38,265 bases of DNA from contig NZ_AKKF01000142.1 of assembly GCF_000281955.1 (NCBI RefSeq), positions 1 to 38,265 on the forward strand, in the 5' to 3' direction. The DNA is from Caulobacter sp. AP07 (GTDB taxonomy: Bacteria; Pseudomonadota; Alphaproteobacteria; Caulobacterales; Caulobacteraceae). The notes beneath the pieces were generated by a model, which was given only the letters and a program-made list of their open reading frames with translations, was not told the origin of the DNA and ran no database searches. This document shows positions 8,920 to 36,828 of this stretch, piece after piece. How positions within the stretch are numbered: position 1 is the stretch's first letter; each line of letters begins with the position of its first letter. The position numbers were made by a program, and so were the translations under genes.

Positions 8920-8933
8920 TTGACGTGGATCAA
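8920..8933 (-). promoter_or_regulatory. FixK/FNR-type box TTGATCCACGTCAA
   Basis: A perfect TTGA-N6-TCAA palindrome, 62 bases upstream of the 95-residue membrane protein gene. Binding by the FixK-like regulator encoded at 22.0 kb is inferred. Confidence 0.7.
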
Positions 8934-8950
8934 GAACTTCGAAGCCCCGG

Positions 8951-9063
8951 CTAGAGCTCGACGGCCCGCTCCCTCAGGGCGTTGGCGATGAGGCTGAATG
9001 ACGACAAGGCCATCGCCGCGGCGGCGAGCTGAGGCGATGACAGAAGCTTGAAGCTCGGACGGC
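8951..9063 (-). pseudogene. C-terminal remnant of a copper-type P-type ATPase
   Basis: Read on the minus strand, this stretch gives SPQLAAAAMALSSFSLIANALRER followed shortly by TAG, closely resembling the last transmembrane helix of CopA-type heavy-metal ATPases (usually SPxxAAAAMALSSVSVVxNALRLR). No start codon or upstream ATPase sequence is attached; the VIT1-like gene ends only a few bases upstream. It is best read as the tail of a lost copper exporter gene. A second possible piece lies at 11.3-11.5 kb. Confidence 0.6.
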
Positions 9064-9066
9064 CAG

Positions 9067-9768
9067 CTAGGCCGCCACGCCGACCAATCGACCAACGCCC
9101 GCTGTGACGCCCATGGCCACCAGGCCCCAGAATGTGACGCGCAGCGTCGCCCGCCACGGCCGCGCCCCGCCCGCCAGGGCGCCGACGAAGCCCAGCAACG
9201 CCAGGCATGCGGTCGAGATCAGCACCACGATCGGAACAAGCAGCGAGGTCGGGGCCAGAAGCACCATCAGCAGCGGCATGACCGCCCCGGCCGCGAAGCT
9301 GCTGGCGGAAGCGACGGCGGCCTGGATCGGCCGCGCCGCCATCGCCTCGGAAATACCCAACTCATCCTGGGCATGGGCTCCGAGCGCGTCCTTGTTCATC
9401 AGTTGGGTCGCCACGCGCCTGGCGGTTTGATCATCCAGTCCCCTTCGCACATAGACTTGGACGAGCTCCTCGTGTTCGGCGTCAGGATCGTCGTGCAACT
9501 CCGCCGTCTCGCGGGCCAGATCGGCTTGTTCGGCGTCAGCCTGCGAACTGACCGAGACATATTCGCCAGCGGCCATGGACATGGCGCCCGCGACCAATCC
9601 GGCAACGCCTGCGACCAGGACGTCCGCGGGCTTGGCCGCGGCGGCGGCGACACCGACGACGAGGCTCGCCGTCGACACCAGCCCGTCGTTGGCCCCCAAC
9701 ACCGCAGCCCGAAGCCAACCGATACGGGAGATCAGATGGCCTTCGATGTGACGCGTCGATCGGGGCAT
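9067..9768 (-). CDS. VIT1/CCC1-family iron/manganese transporter
   Basis: A 233-residue membrane protein that starts HIEGHLISRIGWLRAAVLGANDGLVSTASLVVG, the hallmark first helix of VIT1/CCC1 proteins. It has the conserved AMSMAAGEYVSVSSQADAE segment and a cytoplasmic acidic/His metal-binding region (ELHDDPDAEHEELVQVYVRRGL), and three more helices at the C-terminus. Family members move Fe2+ or Mn2+ out of the cytosol. The ATG at 9768 has only a weak GGACAGG upstream. It runs away from the cytochrome gene at 9862 on the same strand (93-base gap), so it may share that operon's promoter. Confidence 0.9.
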   Translation of the reverse strand: MPRSTRHIEGHLISRIGWLRAAVLGANDGLVSTASLVVGVAAAAAKPADVLVAGVAGLVAGAMSMAAGEYVSVSSQADAEQADLARETAELHDDPDAEHEELVQVYVRRGLDDQTARRVATQLMNKDALGAHAQDELGISEAMAARPIQAAVASASSFAAGAVMPLLMVLLAPTSLLVPIVVLISTACLALLGFVGALAGGARPWRATLRVTFWGLVAMGVTAGVGRLVGVAA

Positions 9769-9804
9769 GGAACCTGTCCAATGTTTCGGAGGAGATGCGA
9801 CCGG

Positions 9805-9820
9805 CGAACGCCGGCGTTCG
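9805..9820. terminator. 16-base palindrome between cytochrome and VIT1 genes
   Basis: CGAACGCC and GGCGTTCG form a perfect palindrome 41 bases past the cytochrome stop on the minus strand. Without loop or T-run it is only a candidate for a weak terminator or processing site. Confidence 0.3.
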
Positions 9821-9861
9821 GGTCGAGGAACCCGTGATTTGACGGGACCGCGCGGCCCTTC

Positions 9862-10299: not shown

Positions 10300-10313
10300 T
10301 TGATCCTTGTCAA
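10300..10313. promoter_or_regulatory. FixK/FNR-type box TTGATCCTTGTCAA between divergent operons
   Basis: A perfect TTGA-N6-TCAA palindrome. It lies 53 bases before the DUF2267 start on the plus strand and 57 bases before the cytochrome start on the minus strand, so a single site could serve both. Confidence 0.75.
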
Positions 10314-13367: not shown

Positions 13368-13381
13368 TTGATCTTGCTCAA
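13368..13381 (-). promoter_or_regulatory. FixK/FNR-type box of the small-membrane-protein operon
   Basis: TTGATCTTGCTCAA on the plus strand, a perfect TTGA-N6-TCAA palindrome 53 bases before the 51-residue gene. The next gene on its other side ends at 13453, so it serves this operon. Confidence 0.7.
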
Positions 13382-13452: not shown

Positions 13453-13860
13453 CTATCGCGGCCTGGTCCGAGGCCGAGGATCGAGGCTTCGGAGATAGGC
13501 CTTCAACTGAACGACCTCGTCCTCGTCCAGCTCGACCATCGGCATGCGCGGATGGTGGTCCGGAGTGCCCTCCTCGGGCGGCCGACCGGGCGCCAGCATG
13601 CCTTCGGTCAGGATCTGGTCGAGCCCGCCTGGCGGGTAGCGCCGGTACAGGGTCGCGAAGGGCGGCGCGTCGGCCAGCGGACTGGGCCTGGCGTCCACGG
13701 CGTGGCAGATTCCGCAATTGCGCTGGGCGATCCGTTGGCCGCCAAGCGCCTGCGAGGACAGCGGTCGCCGTGCTGGCTCGGAGGAGGCCTGAACCGCCGC
13801 CGCCAACCCCACGGCCAGGATGGCGAGAAGCCCCGCGCCGATCATCATGTCGCCCTTCAT
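13453..13860 (-). CDS. Periplasmic cytochrome c coupled to adhP
   Basis: 135 residues with an N-terminal signal (about 1-25), haem site C49-GI-C52-H53 and a likely Met ligand in HPRMPMVEL. It is a paralogue of the cytochromes at 9.9 and 10.8 kb, with the same [14 protein letters not shown] ... YRRYPPGGL arrangement. Its ATG overlaps the adhP stop (ATGA), so the two are made together. AdhP itself is a cytoplasmic NAD enzyme, so a direct electron transfer is unlikely; co-expression under low oxygen is the simpler reading. Confidence 0.92.
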
Positions 13861-14891
13861 AGCCGATCCTCGAAATCGAGCACCACCCGGCCTTCGATCT
13901 CGCCGCGCGCCATGCGGTCGAAGACGCCGTTGATGTTGTCCAGCCTCTCGGCGTGGACCGTCGCCCGCACCCGGCCGTCGGCGGCGAAGGCCAGGGCCTC
14001 CCGCAGGTCCAGGCGCGTGCCGACGATGGAGCCGCGCACCGTGATCCCACGCAACACCGTGTCGAAGATCGACAGTGGGAAGTCGCCGGGCGGCAGGCCA
14101 TTGAGCGACACCGTGCCGCCCCGCCGAACCATGCCCAGGGCCTGGGAGAAGGCGATGGGCGACACGGCGGTGACCAGGACGCCCTGGGCGCCGCCGATTT
14201 CCTTTTGCAGGTAAGGGCCGGGATCGGCCTCTCGGGCATTGACCGTGATGTCGGCGCCCAGGGTACGCGCCAAATGAAGTTTGTCGTCGTCGATATCGAC
14301 GGCGGCGACCTTGAACCCCATGGCCTTGGCGTACTGCACGGCCATGTGGCCAAGCCCGCCGACGCCGGAGATCGCCACCCAGTCGCCGGGCTTGGCGTCG
14401 GTGACCTTCAGGCCCTTGTAGACGGTGACGCCGGCGCAGAGGATCGGCGCCGCCTCCAGGAAGCTCAGATTGGCCGGCAGGTGGCCGACATAGTCGGCGT
14501 CGGCCAACACGTACTCGGCGAAGCCGCCATCGACGGAATAGCCCGTGTTCCGCTGCGCCTCGCAGAGCGTCTCCCAGCCTCCCAGGCAGTGGGTGCAGTG
14601 GCCACAGGCCGTGTGCAGCCAAGGCACGCCGACCCGGTCGCCCTCTTTGACGTGCTCCACGCCCTTGCCGACCTGGACCACCGTGCCGACGCCCTCGTGA
14701 CCCGGAATGAGCGGAAGGATGGGCTTGACGGGCCAGTCGCCGTGGGCGGCGTGCAGGTCGGTGTGGCAGACTCCGCAGGCGGCCATCTTGACCAGCACCT
14801 GACCGCGACCGGGTTTGGGCCGCGCGACGTGCTCCACGACCAGCGCCTGGCCGAAGGCCCGAACGACGGCGGCCTTCATGGTCTTGTCCAT
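13857..14891 (-). CDS. adhP: Zinc-dependent alcohol dehydrogenase AdhP
   Basis: 344 residues of the medium-chain dehydrogenase family. Catalytic zinc ligands are in CGVCHTDLH (Cys39) and PGHEGVG (His65-Glu66). The structural zinc loop is C-x2-C-x2-C-x7-C in [16 protein letters not shown], and the NAD site GVGGLGH. It interconverts alcohols such as ethanol and aldehydes with NAD(H) in the cytoplasm; reducing acetaldehyde would regenerate NAD+ when respiration slows. GGAGGG precedes the ATG at 14891. A CTACGTA-N5-CCCAA motif about 95 bases upstream marks it as a likely direct FixJ target. Confidence 0.96.
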
Positions 14892-14983
14892 GATATCCCT
14901 CCAGGTGGCGCCGAGGCGCGGCCTGGATGGAATGGGCCGCCTCGTCGTCGCGGTTTGATACCGCCGCCAGAGGCGCCTGGCAG

Positions 14984-15000
14984 TTGGGAGTAATACGTAG
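14984..15000 (-). promoter_or_regulatory. Putative FixJ site upstream of adhP
   Basis: On the minus strand CTACGTA, five bases, then CCCAA. The same motif with identical spacing precedes fixK at 21926-21942. The link to FixJ is inferred from gene context. Confidence 0.5.
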
Positions 15001-15005
15001 AGGCG

Positions 15006-15401
15006 TCAGTAAGCGGCGACGGCGCGCTCGACGGCCTCGACCAGGGCGGCTTCGACCAGTGGTTTTTCGATGACGCGGCTATAGCCCGCCGCCAGGGCCT
15101 GATCGACCAGGCGCGCCGAAGGAAACGCGGTGATCAACAGCGCTTGCCCTTGCCACCCCCGTTCACGCAACCGCCTCAGGATCGACAGGCCGTCGATCTC
15201 GGGCATGCGGTAATCGGCGACCAAGCACACCGCGCCGAGCGCCGTGGGGTCGGCCAACAGGGCCAGACCCGAGGCGTAGGCGCGCACCTCGAAGCCTCGC
15301 CCACGCAGGAGCAATTGCAGTGAGCGGCGGACACCAGGATCGTCTTCGACCAGCAACAGCCGCGCACGGCCTTCGAGCTTGGTGGGAAGCGCTTGCGTCA
15401 T
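15006..15401 (-). CDS. Stand-alone receiver-domain protein next to fixJ
   Basis: 131 residues from ATG 15401; a GTG at 15434 would add 11 residues and lacks a ribosome site, as does the ATG to a large extent. It is one complete receiver domain: acidic pair VEDD, phospho-acceptor Asp in VADYRMPEIDG, Thr in LLITAF and Lys in VIEKP. There is no output domain. In Caulobacter crescentus a lone receiver, FixT, inhibits FixL autophosphorylation; position beside fixLJ and a FixJ-like site upstream make a similar feedback role plausible. It has only one cysteine, so an iron-sulphur cluster of the kind reported for FixT is unlikely. It could instead be a phosphate sink. Confidence 0.88.
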   Translation of the reverse strand: MTQALPTKLEGRARLLLVEDDPGVRRSLQLLLRGRGFEVRAYASGLALLADPTALGAVCLVADYRMPEIDGLSILRRLRERGWQGQALLITAFPSARLVDQALAAGYSRVIEKPLVEAALVEAVERAVAAY

Positions 15402-15459: not shown

Positions 15460-15476
15460 GCGCGGTCGTTACGTAG
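15460..15476 (-). promoter_or_regulatory. Putative FixJ site upstream of the lone receiver
   Basis: Minus strand CTACGTA followed after five bases by CGCGC, so the second half deviates from CCCAA. The core is about 70 bases before the ATG at 15401, close to the spacing seen at fixK. Confidence 0.4.
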
Positions 15477-15482
15477 ACCCCC

Positions 15483-16103
15483 TTAGGCCTCGTCCTGCAA
15501 ACCCGCGGCGAAGGCGATCCGCAGCGCCTCCGAGAGGCTCTTGACCTGCAGCTTGGCCATCACGTTGGCGCGATGGACCTCGACGGTGCGCGGCGAGATG
15601 CCCAGGTCGAAGGCGATGGTCTTGTTGGGAAGGCCCTGGGCCATGCCCTTGAGCACGTCCTGCTCGCGGCTGGTCAGGGCCGCGATGGCGACCGCCGCAT
15701 CGCTCGCCCGCGCCGCACGGGCTTCGACGTCGTCCAGCCGCTCGAAGGCCGCGATGATGGCGGTCAGCAGTACGGCCTTCTCGAACGGCTTCTCAATGAA
15801 ATCGACCGCCCCGCCCTTCATGGCGCGAACCGCCACGGTGATGTCTCCGTGCCCGGTCAGGACCACGACCGGCATGGCGATGCCGCGCTCGGCCATGACC
15901 TTCTGGACCTCCAGGCCGTCCATGCCCGGCATGCGCACGTCCAACAGCACGCAGCCCGGCTCGGCGTCCTTGGCCGCCTGCAGGAAGGCGTCTCCCGAGG
16001 CGTAGGTCGACACCGCGTAGCCGGACGTTTTGAGCATGAACCCGGCCGAGCGACGGATCGCCTCCTCGTCATCGACGATATGGATCATCCGTCTAGCGCT
16101 CAT
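15483..16103 (-). CDS. fixJ: FixJ-family response regulator
   Basis: 206 residues: receiver domain (DD at 11-12, phospho-Asp55 in LLDVRMPGMDG, Thr83, Lys105 in IEKPF) and a LuxR-type HTH near the C-terminus (LTSREQDVLKGMAQGLPNKTIAFDLGISPRTVEVHRANVMAKL). This is the FixJ layout; phosphorylated FixJ activates fixK and related promoters when oxygen is low. AGGAGG lies before the ATG at 16103, which is inside the end of the sensor gene (11-base overlap), so kinase and regulator are co-translated. Confidence 0.95.
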   Translation of the reverse strand: MSARRMIHIVDDEEAIRRSAGFMLKTSGYAVSTYASGDAFLQAAKDAEPGCVLLDVRMPGMDGLEVQKVMAERGIAMPVVVLTGHGDITVAVRAMKGGAVDFIEKPFEKAVLLTAIIAAFERLDDVEARAARASDAAVAIAALTSREQDVLKGMAQGLPNKTIAFDLGISPRTVEVHRANVMAKLQVKSLSEALRIAFAAGLQDEA

Positions 16104-17976
16104 GGATGGCCTCCTTCTCGACCTTGACCAGCGTGAAATGGAATTGCGAGCCGCCGCCGGGCCTGGGCTCATGCCAGATGCGACCGCCGTTGGCCTCGAC
16201 GATCGTGCGGCAGATCGACAGCCCCAGCCCCATGCCTTCGGTCTTGGTGCTGACGAACGCGGTAAACAGTTGCCCAGCAATGCTCGACGCGACGCCGGGA
16301 CCGTTGTCGGCGATCGTCACCCGCACCAGGCCGTCGCCTTGGTCACGCGTGCGAAGCCAGAGCCTGGGCTGCTCGGCGCCGCTCATGGCCTCGACCGCGT
16401 TGCGCGCCAAGTTGATCACCACCTGCTGGATCTGCACGCGATCGATCAGCACGGGCGTGGCGGCGGCGTCCAGTTCGAAAATCGGATCGAGCCCCTGGTC
16501 GCGGGCCCCCATCAAGCCTAGGGCGGCGGCTTCGTGAATGACGGACGGCAGGTCCTCGACGCTCTTTTCAACCTCGCCCCGGGCGACGAAATCGCGCAGC
16601 CGCCGGACGATATGGCCCGCGCGCATCGCCTCGGCGGCCGCGTCATCGAGGGCCTCGCGGATCATCGGCAGGTCGTCGGAATCCGGCTTGGCCAGGAGAT
16701 CGCGCACCGCCTCGACATAGTTGGCGACGGCGGTGATCGGTTGGTTGAGCTCATGGGCCAGGGTCGAGGCCATGGTCCCCATGCCGCTGACCCGGGCGAT
16801 ATGGATCAGCTCGGCCTGGAGCTCCTCGAGGCGGGCCTGGGTGCGCTGGCGATCGGTCAGGTCGCGGACGAAACCAGTGAACACCCGGGGGCCATGGCCG
16901 ATGGCTTCGCCGACCGACAGCTCCATCGGAAAGGTCGTGCCGTCCTTGCGCATGCCGACGACGACGCGCCCCATGCCGATGACCTTGCGCTCGCCCGTGG
17001 TCAGGTAGCGCTCGATATAGGCGTCGTGGCGCTCGCGGTCGGGCGACGGCATCAGGCAACGAACGTTCTCGCCCAGCACTTCGGTCTCCTGAAAACCGAA
17101 CAGGCGCTCGGCGGCGGCGCTGAACGACAAGATCTTTCCCCGTTCGTCGATGACCACCATGGCGTCGGGAACGGTGGACAGGATCGACCGCAAATGTTCG
17201 GCGCTGGCGTCCAGGGCTTGCTCGCTAGCGCGTTGGTCGGTGACGTCGCGCAGGACCGTGCCAAATCCCCGCAAGGCCCCGGCCCGGTCGTGAAGCGCGG
17301 TGATGGAAACGTGGGCCAGGAATTCCGAACCGTCCTTGCGCAGAAGCCAGGCCTCGTCCTCGATCTTGCCTTCGGCCTGGGCCCTGGCGAGGTCGGCCCG
17401 TGGCTTGCCCGACTGGCGGGCGTCCTGCGGATAGAACGCCGCGACGTCCTGGCCGACGACCTCGGCCTCGCTCCAGCCCATGAGCCTTTGCCCGCCGGCG
17501 TTCCAGATCAACACCCGCCCCTCTGGGCCGAGCATGCAGGTGGCGTACTCGGTCGCGCCGTCGATCAGCAGGTTGAGTCCGCTGGCGACGTCTTCGGCTT
17601 GCCTCGCCCTGGCCGCGGCGCCCTGCTCGCTGGAAGCCGACCGCAGACGCAGCCGTTCGATTTCCGCGCCCACCAGAATTATGCCCGTCGCCGCCAACAG
17701 GAAGGTCAGCGCCTCCGCCATCGCCAGGGCGTCCGGTCGGTCGCGGCCGCTGAACGCGAAACCGGCGACGAGGCCCAAGAACGTGGCGACGAGGCTAGGC
17801 CCCACACCGCCGAACACCGAGGCGACGACAATGGGCACGGTAAAGAGCAGATAGGCGGCATGATCTCCCAGCCAAGGGGCCAATAACCAACGTATCCCAA
17901 TGGCGAGGGCGAAGGCCGCCAGAGCGACGCCGTAGCCCTTCATCCGGTCTCGTTGGAGGGCCAAGCCGAACGCCAT
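16093..17976 (-). CDS. fixL: FixL-type haem oxygen-sensor histidine kinase
   Basis: 627 residues. An N-terminal membrane region of three to four helices (about 15-105, DUF4118-like) is followed by PAS1 (about 130-250) and PAS2 (about 260-375). PAS2 has the FixL haem signature: RHDAYIERY with His317 as likely proximal ligand, IGMGR with Arg337 as the oxygen-responsive arginine, and RKDGTTFPMELSVGE. The kinase core follows with H-box AHELNQP (His408), N-box NLARNAVEAM, DNGPGV and GMGLGLSI. Family knowledge: unliganded haem switches the kinase on and it phosphorylates FixJ. GGGGAAGGTG precedes the ATG at 17976. It is divergent from the acyl-CoA synthetase gene. Confidence 0.95.
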   Translation of the reverse strand: MAFGLALQRDRMKGYGVALAAFALAIGIRWLLAPWLGDHAAYLLFTVPIVVASVFGGVGPSLVATFLGLVAGFAFSGRDRPDALAMAEALTFLLAATGIILVGAEIERLRLRSASSEQGAAARARQAEDVASGLNLLIDGATEYATCMLGPEGRVLIWNAGGQRLMGWSEAEVVGQDVAAFYPQDARQSGKPRADLARAQAEGKIEDEAWLLRKDGSEFLAHVSITALHDRAGALRGFGTVLRDVTDQRASEQALDASAEHLRSILSTVPDAMVVIDERGKILSFSAAAERLFGFQETEVLGENVRCLMPSPDRERHDAYIERYLTTGERKVIGMGRVVVGMRKDGTTFPMELSVGEAIGHGPRVFTGFVRDLTDRQRTQARLEELQAELIHIARVSGMGTMASTLAHELNQPITAVANYVEAVRDLLAKPDSDDLPMIREALDDAAAEAMRAGHIVRRLRDFVARGEVEKSVEDLPSVIHEAAALGLMGARDQGLDPIFELDAAATPVLIDRVQIQQVVINLARNAVEAMSGAEQPRLWLRTRDQGDGLVRVTIADNGPGVASSIAGQLFTAFVSTKTEGMGLGLSICRTIVEANGGRIWHEPRPGGGSQFHFTLVKVEKEAIHER

Positions 17977-21925: not shown

Positions 21926-21942
21926 CTACGTAAACATCCCAA
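21926..21942 (+). promoter_or_regulatory. Putative FixJ site upstream of fixK
   Basis: CTACGTA, five bases, CCCAA; the core is about 70 bases before the fixK ATG. The same motif and spacing occur upstream of adhP. Activation of fixK by FixJ is the known family circuit; the site itself is inferred. Confidence 0.55.
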
Positions 21943-21999
21943 TGGGCGACCAACCGCCCTCCGCCTATCCCTGAGACCTGCCGCTCAAGGAGACGTGCG

Positions 22000-28416: not shown

Positions 28417-30078
28417 CTACAACGCGCCCTCTCGCGGCGACGCGTCTTGACCTGGGTCAAGTTCGCTCGAAGGCGGAGGCTTCCCATCGCCGAACTGCCC
28501 ACCGACAACGGCGCTCAGGCGGCGCAGCAGCGCCTCGCGGGCGGCGTCGTCCCGAGCCCCTTCCAGGGCGGCGTTGAGCGCCAGCTGAAAGGCGACCCGG
28601 TGGTTATGCCAGTCGAGCTTGGCCGCGGCATGGGGCGGCAACCGGGCGGGCGATGGTTGCCTCGGCGTCGCGGCCCCCTCGGTGAGGTCGAAGGCGTCGT
28701 CCAGGTCCGGGATCAAGATGGCGCCGGCGTCGAAGCCCGCGGCGATCAGCCGATCGCGCAGGCCGGCGGCGGCGTCCGGCTCCCCGTGGGCCAGCAGAAC
28801 TGAACCGCTGACCGGAGCACGATCGAGCGCCCATCGCGTCAGGCCCGCCGCATCGGCATGAGCCGAATAGGCGTCGAGCTTGCGCACCCGCGCGCGAACC
28901 CGAACCTCGTCGCCCTGGATGCTGACCCGCGGCGCGCCGTCAGCGAGCAGCCGTCCTAACGTGCCGGCGGCCTGGAAACCACAGAGCAGCACGGTCGCTT
29001 CCTTGCGCCACAGCAGCCGCTTGAGGTGTTTGCGCACCCGGCCCGCGTCGCACATGCCGCTGGCCGCCAGGATCACATGCCAGCCGGAGAGGCGCTCCAG
29101 GCCATCGCTGTCCCATGGCTTGGCCAGGAAGCGCAGGTGCTCGGAGGGCCGGACCGGCTCGAACGGGTTTCGCTGGAGGGCGGGGTTCCAGCCTCGATCG
29201 AGGAACACCTTGGAGGCTTCAATGGCCAGCGGCGAGTCGAGGAAGATGTCGCCGCGCGGCGCGTCCCCGTCTTCCATCAACTGCTGCAGGTCGACCAGGA
29301 GCTCCTGGCTGCGTTCCAGCGCGAAGGCGGGGATGAGCAGCGGCCCGCCCGCGGCGTGGGCCGCCTTAAGCTCCTCGGCCAAGGCCGCCCGGCGAGCGAC
29401 GCCGCTGGCGGCCACGCGTTCCCGGTCGCCGTAGGTGGATTCGAGGATCAGATGGTCGACGCCCTTGGGGCCTTGCGGGTCGGCGACGAAATCGCTCCCG
29501 CCAGAGCCGAGGTCCCCGGAGAACAACAGGCGCTTCTCGGCGCCGGCGGGATCGACAACGACCTCGATGGAGGCCGAGCCCAGGATGTGACCCGCCTCCC
29601 AATAGACCGCCGAGAGTCCGGGGGCGACCGCCACCGGCTCGCCCAGCTTGACCTTCCGAAATTGCTTCGTGACCCGGGCCGCGTCGGCCTCAGTGTAGAT
29701 CGGCTCGACCGGGGCCAGACCCCGCCTCTGATTGCGCCGATTGAGGGCCGCCACCTCCCCTTCCTGGATGCCGCCCGCGTCGGCGAGCATCACCGCGCAA
29801 AGGTCGCGCGTCGCCGCCGTCGCATAGATCGGCCCCTCGAAGCCCGCGAGCATCAGCTTGGGAAGCAGGCCGCAATGGTCGACATGGGCATGGGTGAGCA
29901 GGACAGCGTCGATCTGACTCGGATCGAAGGGAAACTCGCCATAGTTCAGCGCCTTGAGGGTCTTTGATCCCTGGAACATGCCGCAGTCGACCAGGATCGT
30001 GGCCTCCTGCGTCTGCAGGCGTGCGCACGAGCCGGTGACGCAGCCGGCGGCGCCGTGAAAGGACAGGATCGGGGTCAT
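28417..30078 (-). CDS. Beta-CASP metallo-beta-lactamase-fold ribonuclease
   Basis: 553 residues. The N-terminus has the metallo-beta-lactamase motif HAHVDHCG with further ligands in EAGHILGSAS and FSGDLGSGGSDF; the middle is the beta-CASP domain (ESTYGDRER, AFALERSQELL, ASGMCDAGRVRKHL) and a RMMBL-like end (YSAHADAAGLTRW). This is the CPSF73-like family of RNA endo/exonucleases. About 90 extra C-terminal residues are low-complexity and not shared by the family. It is second after the host-attachment-type gene in a FixK-driven run, with a further box inside its 3' end. Confidence 0.93.
   Translation of the reverse strand: MTPILSFHGAAGCVTGSCARLQTQEATILVDCGMFQGSKTLKALNYGEFPFDPSQIDAVLLTHAHVDHCGLLPKLMLAGFEGPIYATAATRDLCAVMLADAGGIQEGEVAALNRRNQRRGLAPVEPIYTEADAARVTKQFRKVKLGEPVAVAPGLSAVYWEAGHILGSASIEVVVDPAGAEKRLLFSGDLGSGGSDFVADPQGPKGVDHLILESTYGDRERVAASGVARRAALAEELKAAHAAGGPLLIPAFALERSQELLVDLQQLMEDGDAPRGDIFLDSPLAIEASKVFLDRGWNPALQRNPFEPVRPSEHLRFLAKPWDSDGLERLSGWHVILAASGMCDAGRVRKHLKRLLWRKEATVLLCGFQAAGTLGRLLADGAPRVSIQGDEVRVRARVRKLDAYSAHADAAGLTRWALDRAPVSGSVLLAHGEPDAAAGLRDRLIAAGFDAGAILIPDLDDAFDLTEGAATPRQPSPARLPPHAAAKLDWHNHRVAFQLALNAALEGARDDAAREALLRRLSAVVGGQFGDGKPPPSSELDPGQDASPREGAL
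28447..28460 (-). promoter_or_regulatory. FixK/FNR-type box inside the nuclease gene end
   Basis: TTGACCTGGGTCAA, a perfect TTGA-N6-TCAA palindrome, 66 bases before the ElaB-like start and within the last codons of the nuclease gene. It would be an internal promoter for the ElaB-like gene and the ATPase. Confidence 0.65.
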
Positions 30079-30648: not shown

Positions 30649-30662
30649 CTGATCTGGATCAA
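30649..30662. promoter_or_regulatory. FixK/FNR-type box CTGATCTGGATCAA between divergent genes
   Basis: One base off the palindrome. It lies 48 bases before the host-attachment-type gene (minus) and 62 bases before the quinone oxidoreductase gene (plus) and may serve both. Confidence 0.6.
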
Positions 30663-30724: not shown

Positions 30725-31324
30725 ATGAAACACGCCGTCATCCTCGCCCACCCCAGGCCCACCAGCGTCTGCGCGGCCATCGCCCGGACCTGCGTCGAGC
30801 ACCTGCGCGCGACCAACCACACCGTGATCCTGCGCGACCTCTATGTGCTGGATTTCGATCCGCGCCTGAAAGCCGAGGAACTGCCGTCGCCGTCGGGCGT
30901 GCATCCGGCCGCGGACGTCGTCGCCGAACGGCGGCTGATCGGGGAGATCGACAGCTTCATCTTCGTCTATCCCTTCTGGTTCAACGCGCCGCCCGCCATC
31001 CTCAAGGGCTATATCGACCGGGTGTTCAGTATGAGCTTTGGCTACGCGCCGGGTCCGAGCGGCACGGAATCGCTGCTCGACGACAAGACCTTGCTGAGTT
31101 TTTCGACCTCCGGGGCGCCCGAGGACTGGGTGAACAACACCGGAGCGTTGCAGGCCCTGATGACGGTCTTCGACCTGCACCTGTCGGGGGTCTGCGGACT
31201 GCGGGTTCTGGACCACAAGCACTTCGGCTCGATCGTCTCCAACATTACAGCCGAGTCCGTCGCTGACCTGCTGGACCAAGTTCGCATGCGTCTGGACGAT
31301 CTCTTTGGCTCGGCCCTGGCGTGA
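30725..31324 (+). CDS. NAD(P)H:quinone oxidoreductase, flavodoxin-like
   Basis: 199 residues: MKHAVILAHPRPTS (phosphate/FMN loop), FVYPFWFNAPPAILKGYIDRVFSMSFGY and the STSGAP segment, typical of the NQO1/KefF/MdaB flavodoxin-like two-electron reductases. Such enzymes reduce quinones with NAD(P)H in the cytoplasm and prevent semiquinone formation. GGGAG precedes the ATG at 30725. Its stop overlaps the GTG of the Nramp-like gene (GTGA). Confidence 0.9.
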   Translation: MKHAVILAHPRPTSVCAAIARTCVEHLRATNHTVILRDLYVLDFDPRLKAEELPSPSGVHPAADVVAERRLIGEIDSFIFVYPFWFNAPPAILKGYIDRVFSMSFGYAPGPSGTESLLDDKTLLSFSTSGAPEDWVNNTGALQALMTVFDLHLSGVCGLRVLDHKHFGSIVSNITAESVADLLDQVRMRLDDLFGSALA

Positions 31325-32724
31325 CGCTCAGCATGGCTTCGTTCGACAACAACCTGCAGTCCGGCGCGCGCCGTCGGGCGGAATCGTCCATGAGCGATCG
31401 CGCAGAAGCCAAGGTGCAACCGGCCACCGATCACTTCGTTCGACCTCCCTCCCTACATCCCAATGTGCACCGGCTTCGGCGGGCCGCGCTCTTCCAACGG
31501 CTGGGACCGGGCCTGATCACCGGGGCGGCGGACGATGACCCGGGCGGCATAGCCACCTACTCCCAAGCCGGCGCCCAAATGGGTCTGCAGATGCTCTGGA
31601 CCGTGCCGTTCAGCTATCCGCTGCTGTCCGCGATCCAGATGATCAACGCCCGTATCGGGCGGGTGACGGGCCGTGGGCTGGCGGCGAATCTGGGCCGCGT
31701 GTTCCCCCGTCCAATCGTCACAGTCCTCGTGGGGTTGCTGTTCGTCGCCAACGTGGTGAACATCGGCGCCGACCTCGCGGCGATGGGTTCGGCGGCGAAG
31801 CTGGTGTTGGGCTGGGGCCAGCACACGTTCACCGTGCTCTTCGCGGCGCTCTCCCTGGCCTTACAAATCCTCATCCCCTATCACCGCTATGTCCGCTACC
31901 TGAAGTGGCTGACGCTCGCGCTGTTCGCATATGTCGGCGTGGTCTTCACCGTGCATATCGATTGGAGCCAGGTCGCTCTTCGTACGGTGGTTCCGCAGTT
32001 GGCGTTCACAGGGGCGACCGTCACCATGGTCGTGGCCATCTTCGGCACGACCATCAGCCCCTACCTGTTCTTCTGGCAGGCCTCCGAAGAGGTGGAAGAC
32101 GAGGAGGCCGACCCGACGACCGGCCCGTTGCTGACCCATCCGGAACAGGCCCCAGAGCAGCTGAGCCGCATCCGCTGGGACACCTATGTCGGCATGGGCT
32201 TCGCCCACCTGATCGCCTTCTTCATCATCCTGACGACGGCCGTCACCCTAAATTCGGCCGGCGTGACCGATATCCAGACCTCCGCCGAGGCCGCCCAGGC
32301 GCTGAAACCTATCGCGGGGACGCTCGCCTTCCTGCTGTTCAGCCTGGGCATCATTGGCACGGGCCTGCTCGCGGCGCCCATCCTGGCCGCATCGGCGGCC
32401 TATGCGATCAGCGAATCCCAAGGCTGGAAAATTGGACTTGAACACCCGGCGCGCGAGGCCGTGGGCTTCTACAGCGTGATTGGCCTCGCCACGATCCTGG
32501 GGCTCGTCGTGGACTATTCGTCCCTGGACCCGATCAAGGCCTTGTTCTGGAGCGCGGTGCTGAACGGTGTGATCGCCGTGCCGATCATGGCGGCGATGAT
32601 GGTGGTGGCGTCTCGCCGCCATGAGATGGGACAGTTCGTAGCGACGCTAGGGCAGCGCATCTTCGGCTGGCTGGCGACTGCGATCATGGCCGCCGCGGTG
32701 GTCGCCATGTTCGCGTTGCGGTAA
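31321..32724 (+). CDS. Nramp-related metal transporter with atypical motifs
   Basis: Up to 467 residues from GTG 31321; ATGs at 31333 or 31391 are alternatives. About eleven transmembrane helices. Helix 1 carries ITGAADDDPGGIATYS, the Nramp DPG site, with Gly replacing the usual Asn after DPG. Helix 6 reads FGTTISPYLFFWQA in place of the canonical MPHN segment, so the Met that prefers Mn2+/Fe2+ is missing. The protein belongs to a large subgroup annotated as Nramp; ion choice (possibly Mg2+ or another hard ion) is open. It is translationally coupled to the quinone oxidoreductase gene. Confidence 0.9.
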   Translation: MTLSMASFDNNLQSGARRRAESSMSDRAEAKVQPATDHFVRPPSLHPNVHRLRRAALFQRLGPGLITGAADDDPGGIATYSQAGAQMGLQMLWTVPFSYPLLSAIQMINARIGRVTGRGLAANLGRVFPRPIVTVLVGLLFVANVVNIGADLAAMGSAAKLVLGWGQHTFTVLFAALSLALQILIPYHRYVRYLKWLTLALFAYVGVVFTVHIDWSQVALRTVVPQLAFTGATVTMVVAIFGTTISPYLFFWQASEEVEDEEADPTTGPLLTHPEQAPEQLSRIRWDTYVGMGFAHLIAFFIILTTAVTLNSAGVTDIQTSAEAAQALKPIAGTLAFLLFSLGIIGTGLLAAPILAASAAYAISESQGWKIGLEHPAREAVGFYSVIGLATILGLVVDYSSLDPIKALFWSAVLNGVIAVPIMAAMMVVASRRHEMGQFVATLGQRIFGWLATAIMAAAVVAMFALR

Positions 32725-32783: not shown

Positions 32784-33779
32784 TTATGGCGGCGGATTGA
32801 TCTGCAGCACCGCGGCCCCCGTGAAGGCGCCGCCACGCAAGTCGGCGAGCGCTTGGCCGGCCTGTCGAAGACCGTAGATTCTAAGGTGCGGCCGTACGCC
32901 GGCGGCGGCGGCGCGCGGCAGGTAGTCCTGGGCGTCGGCGCGGGTGAGGTTGGCCACCGAGACCAGGGTTCGCTCGCCCCACAGGTCGGCATAATCCAGG
33001 GCCGGGATCTGGCTCATATGGATTCCCGCGCACACCACCGCGCCGCCCTTGCGGACCGCCCGCAACGCGAGCGGCACAAGCGCGCCGATCGGCGCGAACA
33101 GGATGGCGGCGTCCAGCAGCTCGGGCGGCGCGACGTCCGACGCTCCCGCCCACAGGCAGCCCAACTCTAGCGCGAGGTTCTGCGCGGCCTGATCGCCGGG
33201 CTTGGTGAAGGCGTAGACTTTCTGCCCCTCGGCGATCGCCAATTGAGCCAGGAGGTGGGCGGCGGCGCCAAAGCCATAGAGGCCCAGCCGATCGACGACC
33301 CGCCCCTCCATCGCCTTGCGCCAGGCGCGAAAGCCGATCAGACCGGCGCAGAGCAACGGCGCGGCCTCAAGATCGCCGAGACCATCGGGCAGGACCAAGC
33401 AGAAGCGCGCATCGGCGACCGTCATTTCCGCGTAGCCGCCGTCGCGCGTCCAGCCTGTGAACTGAGCGTGATCGCAAAGGTTTTCCGCGCCCTGGCGACA
33501 GAAGCGGCAACGCCCACAGGCGCCGCCAAGCCACGGGACACCGACGCGCTGACCTAGGGCGAGGCTCGTGACGCCCTGCCCGAGCGCCTCCACGACGCCG
33601 ACGATCTCATGTCCCGGAATGACGCCGTCGCGCGTGGGAAGATCGCCTTCCAGAAGATGAAGATCCGTGCGGCAGACGCCGCAGGTGCGCACACGGAGCA
33701 GGACCTCGCCCGGGCCAGGCGTTGGCGCGTGACGGAGGGCGGGCGTCAGGTGGCCGCCCTCCAGGACCATCGCCAACAT
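32784..33779 (-). CDS. Zinc-dependent alcohol dehydrogenase, second copy
   Basis: 331 residues of the medium-chain dehydrogenase family: CGVCRTDLH and PGHEIVG (catalytic zinc), CGRCRFCRQGAENLC (structural zinc) and a Rossmann loop with GLYGFGAAAH. It is more distant from AdhP (14 kb): shorter, with GFGAAA in place of GVGGLG, like the AdhA/zinc-binding group found in low-oxygen clusters. Substrate unknown. Its ATG begins one base after the Hsp20 stop, so it is coupled to Hsp20. The direction converges on the Nramp-like gene. Confidence 0.93.
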   Translation of the reverse strand: MLAMVLEGGHLTPALRHAPTPGPGEVLLRVRTCGVCRTDLHLLEGDLPTRDGVIPGHEIVGVVEALGQGVTSLALGQRVGVPWLGGACGRCRFCRQGAENLCDHAQFTGWTRDGGYAEMTVADARFCLVLPDGLGDLEAAPLLCAGLIGFRAWRKAMEGRVVDRLGLYGFGAAAHLLAQLAIAEGQKVYAFTKPGDQAAQNLALELGCLWAGASDVAPPELLDAAILFAPIGALVPLALRAVRKGGAVVCAGIHMSQIPALDYADLWGERTLVSVANLTRADAQDYLPRAAAAGVRPHLRIYGLRQAGQALADLRGGAFTGAAVLQINPPP

Positions 33780-33780: not shown

Positions 33781-34257
33781 TCAGGCGCCGGCCCTGGAGC
33801 CGGGGGTCTCGATGGCGATGGTCTTGCCGGCGGGACTGGCGGTCTTTGGCGCGGTGATCGTCAGGACGCCGTCCTTGAGCGCGGCCTTGATCTTGTCACC
33901 ATCAACGCCGCGCGGCAGGGCGATTGACCGCGTGAAGGCGCCGGAACGCCGCTCGATAATGCGATAGGTCTTGTCGCCGTCCTCAGTCTGCGAGGCCTTT
34001 TCGCCCGAGATGGTCAGCAGGTCGCCATCCAGGCTGACGGTGATTTGCGGCTCGGCGTAGCCTGGCACATCGAGTTTCAATTCAACGCCTTGCGCGGTCT
34101 CGCTGAAATCCAGGTCCGGCGAAGAGAAGGTCTGCGCCAGACCGGCGGCGCGACCGAACTCGTTGACCACCCGGTCGATCTCCCGCTGCAGGGGCGCGAA
34201 CAGATGCGTGGCTTGCTGGGTGAAAGCCGGCAGCAAGGACTTGTCTTGAACGGCCAT
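33781..34257 (-). CDS. Hsp20 small heat-shock protein
   Basis: 158 residues with a helical N-terminal arm (FTQQATHLFAPLQREIDRVVNEF), the alpha-crystallin domain (about 48-145, DLDFSETAQGVELKLDVPGYAEPQITVSLDGDLLTISGEK ... DGVLTITAPK) and a short tail without a clear I-x-I motif until TIAIET. It is an ATP-independent holdase for unfolding proteins. GGAG precedes the ATG at 34257. A FixK-type box 76 bases upstream and the coupled dehydrogenase place it in the low-oxygen response rather than, or in addition to, heat shock. Confidence 0.95.
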   Translation of the reverse strand: MAVQDKSLLPAFTQQATHLFAPLQREIDRVVNEFGRAAGLAQTFSSPDLDFSETAQGVELKLDVPGYAEPQITVSLDGDLLTISGEKASQTEDGDKTYRIIERRSGAFTRSIALPRGVDGDKIKAALKDGVLTITAPKTASPAGKTIAIETPGSRAGA

Positions 34258-34333: not shown

Positions 34334-34347
34334 TTGATCTCGATCAT
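34334..34347 (-). promoter_or_regulatory. FixK/FNR-type box upstream of Hsp20
   Basis: TTGATCTCGATCAT, one base off a perfect palindrome, 76 bases before the Hsp20 ATG. Confidence 0.6.
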
Positions 34348-34488
34348 TTTGTGTGCGGCCAACTGCGCCAGGGACCGCATCCCGCTCAGGCCGGGGCCAT
34401 CCCGTCCATCATCGAACGCCCGCCGCCCCGACGTGTCGTCGCTTCCCCGCCCCTGAGGGAGGCTTCCAGCGCCATGGCGCGATCACTC

Positions 34489-34502
34489 TTGATCCGCTTC
34501 AA
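34489..34502. promoter_or_regulatory. Second FixK/FNR-type box far upstream of Hsp20
   Basis: TTGATCCGCTTCAA, a perfect TTGA-N6-TCAA pattern but with a less regular centre. It is 232 bases before the Hsp20 ATG and without an obvious gene of its own; an auxiliary site or an unannotated short transcript is possible. Confidence 0.45.
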
Positions 34503-34558
34503 TCTCAGGCTCAGCCGCAAGACGACGCTATGGAGCCGGCCGGTCGCGACAGGATGCG

Positions 34559-35590
34559 CTAGCCCCACCTCCAAACGCCGGCCGCGGCGCCCAGCGCCAA
34601 CAGGGTCCCCGCCGAATAGAGGCCGCCAAGGCGCCAGCCGCCCACCACGCAGGCGATGACCATCTTCGAGAAACTGTCGACCACGGCCGCCAGCAGCACC
34701 GCCTGGCCGGCGACGCCGATGGCCATGCCCCCCGCCGTCATGCGGGCGGCCGCCAGGGTGACCGCATCGGCGTCGACCAGGCCGCCGAGCGCCGCCACCG
34801 GCAGAAGGCCGGAAGGACCGTAGAGGCCGGCCGCGCCCCTTGCCGCCGCCATGATGACGCCGAGCACCAGGGCCGCGCCCGCCAGGGCGAGGGGTTTGGA
34901 GACCTCCTTCTGCAGTCGCGCCAGATAGAAGGTCACCGCCGTCGAGGAGACCAGCGCGCCGGCCGCACTGGCCAGCAAGGCGCCGCGCGCCGGTCCCCAC
35001 ACCTTGATCGCGGCGTAGGCGACAAAGGAAATCGCCGCCATAGCGATGGTCAGCACCCAGAGTTCGGCGAAATTGACCAAGCCATAGGGTCCAAAGGGGC
35101 GGTTTGGCAGAAGCGGCAGGGCCACGAAGGTCATGGCCAACAGAACCAGCGCGTCTCGGAGTTCGGGCCAGGTCAGACGCTTGAGCCAGGTGTGCAGCAT
35201 CTCCTTGCTCGCCAGCAGAGCAGCGACCGCCACAGCCGCGGCGGCGGCGACCCGCTCGTCGCCGAGCACCGCCAACGCCCCGAGCCCGAAGGTCAACAGG
35301 CCGGCGACGATGGCGGTGACCGAGTAGTCGTTGTCGTCGCGTTGTTCTCGCTGCTTGAAGAGGATGAAGGCCGTCGCGAAGGATAAGCCAAGCGTGGACA
35401 TGGCCCAGCCGCCCAGGGTCTGGCTCAGCATCCCAGCGACCCCGCCGAGCAGACCCGACAGGGCGTAGGTGCGTAAACCCGCGGCGGGGCCCCCTTCGGT
35501 GACGTCGTGCGCCCGCCAGCCCCGCTCGATGCCGATCAGGAAGCCGATGGCCAAGGCCAACCCAAGCCTCTCGAAGGGCTCAACCGCCAT
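34559..35590 (-). CDS. MgtC/SapB-DUF4010 membrane protein
   Basis: 343 residues and about eleven hydrophobic helices. The N-terminus (RLGLALAIGFLIGIERGWRA) has the MgtC-type ALAIGFLIGIERGW signature, and the latter half (AAAGALVSSTAVTFYLARLQKE ... ARMTAGGMAIGVAGQAVLLAAVVDSFSKM) is DUF4010. The family is linked to Mg2+ homeostasis and membrane-ATPase control through MgtC, but DUF4010 itself is uncharacterised. The ATG at 35590 is preceded by purine-rich GAAGAGGA and fits the family start. The gene ends 301 bases upstream of Hsp20. Confidence 0.9.
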   Translation of the reverse strand: MAVEPFERLGLALAIGFLIGIERGWRAHDVTEGGPAAGLRTYALSGLLGGVAGMLSQTLGGWAMSTLGLSFATAFILFKQREQRDDNDYSVTAIVAGLLTFGLGALAVLGDERVAAAAAVAVAALLASKEMLHTWLKRLTWPELRDALVLLAMTFVALPLLPNRPFGPYGLVNFAELWVLTIAMAAISFVAYAAIKVWGPARGALLASAAGALVSSTAVTFYLARLQKEVSKPLALAGAALVLGVIMAAARGAAGLYGPSGLLPVAALGGLVDADAVTLAAARMTAGGMAIGVAGQAVLLAAVVDSFSKMVIACVVGGWRLGGLYSAGTLLALGAAAGVWRWG

Positions 35591-35751
35591 ACCCGATCCT
35601 CTTCCGCCGTTCAGAGGCCTCCCGACATCTGTCCAGGATGCGCCGCAAGAGGCTGGCCGCAACCCGGCGTGGAGCCCAGACCATCCTCCGCCGCTTGCGG
35701 ACCGTTCTCTCGCCGTCGTCTACCGTCAGGGTCCGACATGCGGGCATGACC

Positions 35752-36519
35752 TCAGCGGGCCGTATATCCGCCGTCGATGACCAGCTCCGAACCGGTCACG
35801 AACTTGGCTTCGTCGGACGCCAGATACACAGCTCCCCAGGCGATATCGTCGGCTTCTCCCATATGCCCGAGCGGATGAAGCGCATCGGCGGCCTTGCGGC
35901 CCGTCTCCAGATCGCCCTGGGCGCTCAGGTGATGCTCGACCATCGGCGTCCAGATGAAACCGGGATGGATGGAGTTCACGCGAATTCGATCGCTGGCGTA
36001 GATGAGCGCATCGGTCTTGCTCATCAACCGAACGGCGCCTTTCGACGCGTGGTATGCGGGGACATCCGGCGCTCCCACCAGTCCATAGATGGACGAAAGG
36101 TTGATGATGCTGCCACCGCCCGCGCGTCGCAAATGCGGAATGGCGTGCTTGGTGCAGAAGAACACGCCCTTGACATTGATGGCCTGGACCCAATCCCATT
36201 CGGCTTCGGTCACCTCATGTGTCGGCTTGTTGGCTCCCGCCACGCCGGCATTGTTCACCAGCACATCGATGCGGCCGAAGTACTCGGCCACCTCGTTGAT
36301 CGCCTGCGCCACTTGGGTTTCACTGCTGACGTCGCACCGCCAGTAGCGCGCCGCTTTGCCTGAGGCCATCATTTCGGCGGCCAGCGCGGCGCCCTGGTCG
36401 TCAAGGACGTCGAAGATGGCGATCGAAGCGCCTTCCTCCGCCATTCGCAGCGCCGTGGCTCTGCCAAGCCCGAGCGCCGCACCCGTGACGGTCGCGACCT
36501 TGTTCTTAAGCCGATCCAT
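35752..36519 (-). CDS. Short-chain dehydrogenase/reductase
   Basis: 255 residues of the classical SDR type: cofactor loop TGAALGLG, NNAG, catalytic Ser in NLSSIYG and YxxxK as YHASK, and the PGFIWTPM segment. Substrate unknown; the sequence is in the glucose-dehydrogenase/cyclohexanol-type group. The ATG at 36519 matches the family start (MDRLKNKVATVTG); an upstream ATG at 36600 with AGGGG before it would add 27 residues and cannot be excluded. A perfect FixK-type palindrome is 118 bases before the first and 37 before the second. Confidence 0.92.
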   Translation of the reverse strand: MDRLKNKVATVTGAALGLGRATALRMAEEGASIAIFDVLDDQGAALAAEMMASGKAARYWRCDVSSETQVAQAINEVAEYFGRIDVLVNNAGVAGANKPTHEVTEAEWDWVQAINVKGVFFCTKHAIPHLRRAGGGSIINLSSIYGLVGAPDVPAYHASKGAVRLMSKTDALIYASDRIRVNSIHPGFIWTPMVEHHLSAQGDLETGRKAADALHPLGHMGEADDIAWGAVYLASDEAKFVTGSELVIDGGYTAR

Positions 36520-36828
36520 CGGCTTCACCCTTCGGATAACCGACACCGCCGAGAGAGAACGCCTGCTTGTTGCAGGTGCTCGGCGCTCTTCGGATTTCAT
36601 CACGCCCCTAATGTCCCCCTCTCGCGCGGCGTCACATTGATACAGCTCAAGTATTTTGCTCCGCGACTAGCTGGTCAGAATGACCGATCCATGGGGTTCG
36701 TGGGCGGGTGAAATCGGATCGGAAACGCCACGGCCACCGAGCTTGACCACGAGCAGGTCTCACTAGCTCTTCGTCGCTAGCGGCTGGTCGAAACGCCAGC
36801 TTCTCGCGCCTAGATCGCGACCGAGAGC
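36520..36828. other. 309-base region between the SDR and the transposase fragment
   Basis: Holds the SDR leader and a FixK-type box at 36637-36650. Beyond about 36700 no gene, repeat or IS end was recognised; the left end of the insertion sequence is not visible. Confidence 0.5.
36637..36650 (-). promoter_or_regulatory. FixK/FNR-type box upstream of the SDR
   Basis: TTGATACAGCTCAA, a perfect TTGA-N6-TCAA palindrome; the last one in the window and the right edge of the box-bearing region. Confidence 0.65.

What the first reader, a model, noticed from the sequence alone, without database searches (positions are those of the whole stretch)
8920..36650. A 28-kb low-oxygen regulon marked by nine FixK-type palindromes
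Six perfect TTGA-N6-TCAA sites (8920, 10300, 13368, 28447, 34489, 36637) and three one-mismatch ones (25553, 30649, 34334) occur here, nearly all 35-120 bases ahead of genes. A scan by eye found none of the perfect form elsewhere in the window. At this GC content well under one would be expected by chance in 38 kb. The island encodes a FixK-like protein with the matching E-x-x-S-R helix, and FixL/FixJ. Together they define a self-contained oxygen-responsive regulon without cbb3 oxidase, similar in content to the Burkholderia lxa locus and the mycobacterial DosR regulon.
Basis: partly seen in the sequence, partly recalled or inferred. Interest (0 to 1): 0.8.

Follow-up and report, generated by a model that had tools for sequence, protein, structure and literature searches.

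The report
Second oxygen-sensing FixLJ-FixK survival island
A 28-kb gene island in a Caulobacter-group genome carries a second set of predicted oxygen-sensing regulators (FixL, FixJ, FixT, FixK) among clustered DNA sites of the kind FixK and FixJ bind, so it would likely switch on low-oxygen survival genes through a control line partly separate from the cell's ordinary one.

Summary
All six perfect and all three named one-mismatch sites are at the stated places. The 5.6-Mb genome has 30 perfect sites, 6 of them in this 0.68% of it. In relatives with shuffled gene order, sites recur 50-90 bp before the same genes, with an A/T-rich step where a class II promoter needs its -10 box.

The reading is mostly right but incomplete. 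(1) It is a second system: a canonical FixL-FixJ-FixK sits on contig C270, and cydA on C155 has a FixK site. (2) It has two tiers: the island fixK lacks a FixK site but has a FixJ box whose half-site (CCAATG) differs from the usual CCCTTA type; adhA has a weaker one. (3) Its tandem-PAS FixL groups with FixLs of sphingomonad conjugative plasmids, apart from the genome's own FixL; there FixJ-type boxes, not FixK sites, precede many genes. (4) No cbb3 was found in this genome, but other carriers have it.

No expression data exist here. New variant of a known kind.

The parts
16093..17976 (-). fixL: DUF4118-type membrane part, first PAS, heme-type PAS, HisKA, HATPase (627 aa)
   Evidence: Pfam; residues 260-387 align to FixL heme PAS 1dp6 with the RHD-x-YI and G-x-GR-x-V segments kept
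15483..16103 (-). fixJ: receiver plus GerE (LuxR-type) DNA-binding domain
   Evidence: Pfam on the longer ORF 15483-16280; start chosen by eye
15006..15401 (-). fixT-like single-domain receiver beside fixJ
   Evidence: Pfam Response_reg; beside fixJ in 12 of 12 long-FixL genomes read, window included
22000..22671 (+). fixK: CRP/FNR regulator with E-T-V-S-R helix, no N-terminal cysteine cluster
   Evidence: Pfam; sequence; FixK2 4i2o E 1e-49
21927..21944 (+). FixJ box TACGTA-N6-CCAATG between usp1 and fixK
14982..14999 (-). weaker FixJ box before adhA
   Evidence: adhA 8 of 9 upstream regions score 7 or more
15470..15487 (+). possible FixJ box before fixT (CTTA-type half)
   Evidence: low score 8.5; TACGTA kept in 11 of 12 rows
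8920..8933 (.). FixK site 1, 68.5 bp before small gene 8571-8858 (-)
   Evidence: one row only
10300..10313 (.). FixK site 2 between divergent cytochrome c (9862-10242 -) and DUF2267 gene (10367-10807 +)
   Evidence: kept in G059 only
13368..13381 (.). FixK site 3, 60.5 bp before small gene 13159-13314 (-)
   Evidence: 3 perfect and 1 one-mismatch of 4 rows, window included
25553..25566 (.). FixK site (1 mismatch) 56.5 bp before usp3
   Evidence: 3 of 6 rows, window included
28447..28460 (.). FixK site 4, 72.5 bp before 109-aa gene 28052-28381 (-), inside the 3' end of the beta-CASP gene
   Evidence: 8 of 8 rows perfect, window included
30649..30662 (.). FixK site (1 mismatch) 69.5 bp before the NQO-type flavodoxin gene
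   Evidence: 13 of 16 rows have a site at 52-72 bp (11 as best match, two more)
34334..34347 (.). FixK site (1 mismatch) 83.5 bp before hsp20
   Evidence: hsp20 4 of 4 rows (3 perfect)
34489..34502 (.). FixK site 5, about 238 bp before hsp20
   Evidence: the site is also in G059 (L106:2986), where no hsp20 match was found and adh2 follows
36637..36650 (.). FixK site 6, 124.5 bp before the SDR gene
   Evidence: 2 of 2 rows: window and G059
18184..20865 (+). ADP-forming acyl/acetyl-CoA synthetase-like protein with GNAT domain
   Evidence: below the NCBIfam cut-offs
21023..21820 (-). universal stress protein 1
23800..24597 (-). universal stress protein 2
24652..25503 (-). universal stress protein 3
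13857..14891 (-). zinc alcohol dehydrogenase adhA
32784..33779 (-). second alcohol dehydrogenase-like gene
33781..34257 (-). Hsp20
25529..28012 (-). cation P-type ATPase
28417..30078 (-). beta-CASP metallo-hydrolase
30725..32724 (+). NQO-type flavodoxin and Nramp transporter genes
4019..5977 (-). large serine recombinase remnant right after lysA; no Resolvase domain found in the ORF
   Evidence: neighbours compared
36829..37476 (+). IS3-type transposase fragment at the right edge

Best explanation
The window holds a gene island in which a FixL-FixJ-FixT module, of a lineage shared with sphingomonad plasmids, is predicted to sense falling oxygen and to switch on fixK through a FixJ box, after which FixK would likely activate the stress, fermentation and electron-transfer genes that carry its palindromes. 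Shown by sequence: the regulators and their domains, the palindromes and their genome-wide concentration, the recurring spacing before the same genes in rearranged relatives, the FixJ-type box before fixK and adhA, and the separate FixL lineage. Inferred: oxygen binding by FixL, phosphotransfer to FixJ, inhibition of FixL by FixT, DNA binding, induction in low oxygen, and survival as the benefit. The genome also has a canonical FixL-FixJ-FixK whose fixK carries the other type of FixJ box, so the two input lines would be kept apart at the FixJ step and could merge at the FixK step, because both FixKs share the helix core LGLTIETVSR and the cydA promoter carries the same palindrome.
For: Density: 6 of 30 genome sites in 0.68% of the genome. 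Conservation: of 228 upstream regions in relatives, window and own canonical loci, 39 hold a perfect site and 33 a one-mismatch one, against 0 perfect and 0-9 one-mismatch for each of 11 rearranged half-sites (11 of the 39 are canonical cydA, fixK and fixL promoters, and five rows repeat a site seen from a neighbouring gene). 109-aa gene 8 of 8 perfect at 68.5-73.5 bp although gene order differs; hsp20 4 of 4; NQO gene 13 of 16 at 52-72 bp. Spacing: over 43 site-gene pairs the A/T share rises to 0.67, 0.65 and 0.67 at +29.5, +30.5 and +33.5 from the centre, where a -10 hexamer lies if the site is centred at -41.5. Sensor: heme-PAS match to solved FixL. FixJ to fixK link: TAMGTA-N6-CMAATG occurs 15 times in 75 whole genus genomes; 13 of the 15 lie just before a fixK gene, 11 of them in long-FixL genomes and 2 in G012 and G013; reversed control 4. 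Long FixL goes with the AATG box in 12 of 12 loci, short FixL with CTTA in 8 of 9; the own canonical fixK has TAGGTA-N6-CCTTAG. Lineage: FixL split of 16 against 27 rows at 100/100.
Against: No expression, binding or oxygen data. The relatives are kin, so the counts are not independent. G012 and G013 have an AATG box; the FixL read beside it in both is of the short type. In one search the A/T share is also 0.65 at +46.5, which has no such reading. FixK sites before SDR (124.5 bp) and the far hsp20 site (about 238 bp) are off class II spacing. Sites before the 9862 cytochrome, DUF2267, SDR and 8571 genes are seen only in the window or in G059. usp2, acs, fixL, the P-type ATPase, Nudix, VIT and DUF4010 genes have no convincing box of either kind in the window. 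G084, a far relative with FixL, FixJ and FixT, shows neither box in 27 kb. The FixK tree bootstrap had not settled.
Confidence: 0.77

Rival explanations
1. The palindromes are used mainly by the canonical FixK (contig C270), fed by the canonical FixL-FixJ, and the island regulators are redundant or weak.
For: Both FixKs share LGLTIETVSR, and cydA carries the same palindrome type.
Against: The AATG FixJ box stands before fixK in 12 of 12 long-FixL loci, and sites are concentrated around the island fixK.
Confidence: 0.14
2. The cluster is an old vertically inherited Caulobacter locus that was lost and reshuffled many times, not a transferred module; the likeness to sphingomonad plasmids reflects shared ancestry.
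For: At least 12 of 75 genus genomes carry it with FixL of one clade; FixK of the island falls among Caulobacteraceae FixKs.
Against: Island FixL is nearer to plasmid FixLs (63-69% for three of them) than to the genome's own FixL (52%); only 2 of 387 evenly drawn class genomes gave a match at E 1e-150, one being the own genome (three candidates scored in each genome); here it follows lysA beside a recombinase remnant, while in G059 lysA keeps its usual neighbour and the island lies on another contig.
Confidence: 0.25
3. The sites are another regulator's, such as an FNR or CRP protein, and the FixK gene is a bystander.
For: FixK and FnrN boxes are very similar (PMC4999443, passages).
Against: Own-genome search with this FixK gave one other FixK-like protein and two weak matches; PMC4999443 reports only FixK in its four Caulobacterales.
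Confidence: 0.05
4. Chance clustering of a 14-mer.
For: Single one-mismatch matches do occur inside genes (21501, 24278).
Confidence: 0.01

Closest known systems
Caulobacter crescentus FixL-FixJ-FixK-FixT hypoxia network (PMC3751524 and PMC7078487, passages seen; the 2005 paper is not held)
   Same: Sensor kinase, FixJ, FixT, FixK, FixK sites, cydA as a target.
   Different: Published FixK-activated genes include ccoN, cydA, ompW, ftrB and fixT; here the sites precede mainly stress, cytochrome, redox and small genes, the FixL has two PAS domains and belongs to another clade, the FixJ box has another half-site, and FixT has one cysteine instead of the four-cysteine motif.
Burkholderia cenocepacia lxa locus (PMC6127331, passages seen)
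   Same: Clustered Usp genes, heat-shock protein, cytochrome c and reductase genes tied to low oxygen; FixK (BCAM0049) suggested as a regulator of the oxygen response.
   Different: There the regulators (BCAM0049; BCAL2210/2211) lie outside the locus (BCAM0275-0323); here they are inside. Gene-by-gene orthology was not tested.
Mycobacterial DosR regulon and Streptomyces OsdR (search listing and abstract starts; the rest recalled)
   Same: Usp, Hsp20-type and cation ATPase content under a two-component system that answers to low oxygen.
   Different: DosR is the LuxR-type regulator itself with another box; no FixK tier (recalled).
FixLJ on sphingomonad plasmids (PMC6783567, passages: copies on two plasmids of Sphingobium hydrophobicum, transfer suggested; that FixL was not in my tree)
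   Same: FixL of the same clade, FixJ and FixT on pLA4, pDB-2, pISP1 and pTK1, with overlapping effector types.
   Different: FixK-type sites at background level there (2 in 150,603 bp); FixJ-type boxes precede many of the genes.

Membership tests
FixL-FixJ-FixT-FixK oxygen network | FixL with heme-type PAS and kinase | tested here: met
   Pfam; 8js5 and 1dp6 alignments. That the kept H and R are the heme and distal residues is recalled.
FixL-FixJ-FixT-FixK oxygen network | FixJ = receiver plus GerE domain, next to fixL | tested here: met
FixL-FixJ-FixT-FixK oxygen network | FixK lacking the FNR cysteines, with E-x-x-S-R helix | tested here: met
FixL-FixJ-FixT-FixK oxygen network | FixJ box before fixK | tested here: met
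   half-site differs from the usual type; binding untested
FixL-FixJ-FixT-FixK oxygen network | FixT four-cysteine Fe-S motif (C. crescentus type) | tested here: not met
   one Cys in the 131-aa protein; [quoted passage not shown]
FixL-FixJ-FixT-FixK oxygen network | Induction and signalling in low oxygen | not testable with these tools
   needs experiment
FixL-FixJ-FixT-FixK oxygen network | Controls a high-affinity oxidase | tested here: inconclusive
   no oxidase gene found in the island, no ccoN match in the genome; FixK site before cydA elsewhere
lxa locus | Gene content (Usp, Hsp, cytochrome c, reductases, SDR) | tested here: inconclusive
   same gene types by Pfam and by protein-table passages of PMC6127331; no orthology test
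lxa locus | Regulators outside the locus | tested here: not met
   fixL, fixJ, fixT, fixK are inside
DosR regulon | LuxR-type DosR with its own box as the activator | tested here: inconclusive
   a FixJ-type and a FixK-type regulator with their boxes are present; the DosR box was not searched for
integrative mobile island | Working recombinase and end repeats | tested here: inconclusive
   recombinase ORF without Resolvase domain; ends not found, contig stops at 38265; in 5 of 7 relatives read lysA is followed closely by an ABC-ATPase gene, in G016 and G018 other ORFs lie between

The most novel reading that the evidence does not exclude
A portable oxygen-sensing module: a plasmid-lineage FixL-FixJ-FixT with its own private FixJ box travels with low-oxygen survival genes; on sphingomonad plasmids FixJ drives those genes directly, and in Caulobacter the module has been rewired through a host-type FixK, giving one cell two FixLJ lines that are insulated at FixJ and joined at FixK.
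Probability: 0.48. Interest if true: 0.75.

Novelty: new variant of a known kind. Interest (0 to 1): 0.62.

Why it matters
Low-oxygen survival gene sets of the DosR or lxa kind are usually studied as fixed parts of one chromosome. This one can be followed across at least 12 Caulobacter-group genomes, and its FixL clade onto conjugative plasmids, with candidate binding sites of both tiers readable from sequence. It makes testable how a likely transferred two-component system keeps its signalling separate from a resident paralogue while sharing the downstream activator, and how direct FixJ control can turn into a FixJ-FixK cascade.

Tried and rejected
Chance clustering was rejected. A FixK site before fixK (autoregulation) was looked for: 0 perfect and 1 one-mismatch of 16 upstream regions, which include some short-FixL loci. 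'No cbb3' as a defining trait was rejected: of 12 long-FixL genomes 6 have ccoN over the cut-off, G041 has a piece, G040 and G074 only weak matches, G000, G035 and G059 none. FixK control of the sphingomonad plasmid genes was set aside for lack of sites. Six one-mismatch matches before fixJ fall in codons of the fixL 3' end and were not taken as sites. The fixT box is left open: TACGTA is kept but the other half varies. G084 has FixL, FixJ, FixT, Usp and acs but neither TTGA-N6-TCAA nor a strict FixJ box in 27 kb read, a result against a universal box. The plasmid FixK query gave 530 records, all under 60% identity. My note says the lysA junction is intact in 7 relatives; 5 of 7 is right. Structure prediction was not used.


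Full report
1. The observation. The window is contig C142 of a 5.6-Mb draft genome in 326 contigs; the closest named FixK in the scan is that of Caulobacter sp. UNC279MFTsu5.1, 92% identical. Genome-wide there are 30 perfect sites, against 11 for the letters read backwards; 6 of 30 in 0.68% of the genome has a binomial P of about 5e-8. I looked at about 2 kb on each side (less at contig ends) of the 24 sites outside the window: many lie inside predicted genes, and by eye two stand out, one 84.5 bp before cydA (bd oxidase, Pfam) and one at the start of a Usp gene. The rest I did not annotate.

2. What the island encodes. Pfam scans give a FixL-like kinase, FixJ, a single receiver (FixT position), FixK, three Usp proteins, Hsp20, two alcohol dehydrogenase-like proteins, an acyl-CoA synthetase-like protein with GNAT domain, a cation P-type ATPase, a beta-CASP hydrolase, an NQO-type flavodoxin, Nramp, VIT, DUF4010/MgtC, PNPOx, Nudix, an SDR and three small c-type cytochromes. 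The FixL heme-PAS region aligns over 128 residues with FixL 1dp6; the FixK has no N-terminal cysteine set and its best solved match is FixK2.

3. The FixK sites behave like sites. I took genes matching the window's in 40 stretches of other genus genomes, plus the window and the own canonical loci, and searched 228 upstream regions. The true half-site gave 39 perfect and 33 one-mismatch matches; each of the 11 rearranged half-sites gave 0 perfect and 0-9 one-mismatch. Eleven of the 39 belong to canonical cydA, fixK and fixL promoters, and five rows repeat a site seen from a neighbouring gene. The 109-aa gene has a perfect site in 8 of 8 rows, at 68.5-73.5 bp. The NQO gene has a site at 52-72 bp in 13 of 16 rows (11 as best match, two more), and its first base is other than T in 12 of the 13. 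hsp20 has one in 4 of 4; usp3 in 3 of 6. Over 43 site-gene pairs the A/T share is 0.67, 0.65 and 0.67 at +29.5, +30.5 and +33.5, where the -10 hexamer falls when the site is centred at -41.5; a value of 0.65 at +46.5 has no such reading. This points to activation (class II), though no start site was mapped.

4. A second tier. The 16 fixK upstream regions hold 0 perfect and 1 one-mismatch FixK site. In the window the fixK promoter holds TACGTA-N6-CCAATG, beginning 73 bp before the start codon, kept in relatives at 53-73 bp. Other FixK genes of the group have a TA-G-type left half and CCCTTA instead, the known type (PMC4999443 quotes TAAGTAATTTCCCTTA for S. meliloti; passages); the own canonical fixK has TAGGTA-N6-CCTTAG. 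Long FixL goes with AATG in 12 of 12 loci, short FixL with CTTA in 8 of 9, the exception being G013. In 75 whole genomes TAMGTA-N6-CMAATG occurs 15 times in 14 genomes; 13 of the 15 lie just before a fixK gene (11 in long-FixL genomes, plus G012 and G013), 2 elsewhere (G001, G052); the reversed pattern occurs 4 times. G040 and G041 have ACAATG and so escape this pattern. In the own genome TAMGTA-N6-CCAA occurs 3 times, 2 of them in this island, before fixK and adhA; the control also occurs 3 times. A matrix built from fixK boxes alone scores 12 or more in 18 of 157 other island upstream regions, against a mean of 0.47 and a maximum of 3 in 100 column shuffles; five of the 18 are the fixK box seen from divergent usp1, and adhA supplies seven.

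5. A second system in the cell. The genome holds another FixL (52%) with one PAS domain, FixJ and FixK (48%) on contig C270 beside an ABC gene taken as cydC; in relatives cydA, cydD, cydC and the canonical fixLJK are contiguous, so C155 and C270 are probably one locus. No ccoN is matched, and the only PF00115 match is a COX1 taken as aa3-type by eye. Of 12 long-FixL genomes, 6 have ccoN over the cut-off, one has a piece, two have weak matches only and three none; so lack of cbb3 is not tied to the island.

6. Where the module comes from. In a FixL tree of 43 rows the island type (about 627 aa, two PAS domains) and four sphingomonad plasmid FixLs form 16 rows split from 27 others, the own canonical FixL among them, at 100/100; pTK1 is on a long branch. 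The plasmids pLA4, pDB-2, pISP1 and pTK1 are typed conjugative and carry FixL, FixJ and a FixT-like receiver. In the stretches read, three of the four also show Usp genes, and various of ppsA, Hsp20, MBL hydrolase, MgtC, acetate kinase and phosphotransacetylase occur; pISP1 shows Hsp20, MgtC, truncated hemoglobin and cytochrome c but no Usp gene. The four hold 2 FixK-type sites in 150,603 bp, which is background (other arrangements 0-4). The FixJ matrix scores 14 or more in 15 of 77 upstream regions (up to 250 bp) of three of them, 11 distinct boxes, against a mean of 0.25 and a maximum of 2 in 100 shuffles. The island FixK, by contrast, falls among Caulobacteraceae FixKs (bootstrap not settled). 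In an even draw of 387 class genomes, 2 gave such a FixL at E 1e-150, the own genome and G084, with three candidates scored in each genome. G084 shows neither box in 27 kb.

7. Mobility. In the window a serine-recombinase remnant follows lysA directly. In five of seven relatives read (G019, G010, G031, G059, G017) an ABC-ATPase gene follows lysA within about 2.3 kb; in G016 and G018 other ORFs lie between. In G059, whose regulators are 90-99% identical, the island is on another contig than lysA. This fits transfer or movement, but the ends were not found and the right end runs off the contig.

8. Against what is known. The C. crescentus FixL-FixJ-FixK-FixT network is the nearest known system; PMC4999443 describes the Caulobacterales FixK targets as limited to redox processes (section read) and reports conserved FixJ sites only before fixK there (passages). 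The lxa locus has similar content but its proposed regulators lie elsewhere (PMC6127331, passages). FixLJ on sphingomonad plasmids has been noted as possibly transferred (PMC6783567, passages); those passages name no regulon. I saw no paper on a second FixLJ-FixK in Caulobacter, the altered FixJ half-site or the plasmid regulon in the listings of searches (open-licence papers only, at most 20 rows each; the 2005 Caulobacter and 2013 lxa papers were not held).

9. Verdict. The site cluster is real and strongly suggests a low-oxygen regulon; the deeper result is a two-tier, second FixLJ line of plasmid-type lineage. All steps of action in the cell are inferred.

Noticed in passing
G029 contigs C55:19254 and C186:485243 (L114, L116): Two near-identical island-type FixKs in one genome, both with the AATG FixJ box.
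   Followed up: partly
L112 (G031 C31) 17703 and 18060; ccoN at C31:18354-19751: A ccoN lies just beyond the island with two perfect FixK sites within 0.7 kb before it.
   Followed up: no
L131 (pTK1) 17724, 24939, 31254; L129 (pDB-2) 15005, 27495: High-scoring FixJ-type boxes on sphingomonad conjugative plasmids near FixL, phosphofructokinase, ppsA, Hsp20 and hydrolase genes.
   Followed up: partly
window 9862-11220 and 13453-13860: Three small c-type cytochrome genes within 4 kb.
   Followed up: no
window 37523-38263 and own contig C209:17735-18472: Two GH31-like C-terminal pieces, 89% identical, each at a contig end.
   Followed up: no
L155 (G018) and L156 (G016) after lysA: Other ORFs lie between lysA and its usual neighbours, so this may be an insertion hot spot.
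   Followed up: no
L088, L089, L092, L094, L097, L098: A second, distant FixK-like protein (36-39%) sits a few kb from FixK with perfect FixK sites around it, in loci with short FixL.
   Followed up: no
NQO promoters, e.g. window 30649: The first base of this site is other than T (C, G or A) in 12 of the 13 rows with a site at 52-72 bp, as if a weaker site were selected.
   Followed up: no
L159-L160 (G084): A far alphaproteobacterial chromosome has FixL (58%), FixJ, FixT, Usp and acs together but neither FixK nor FixJ box in 27 kb.
   Followed up: partly
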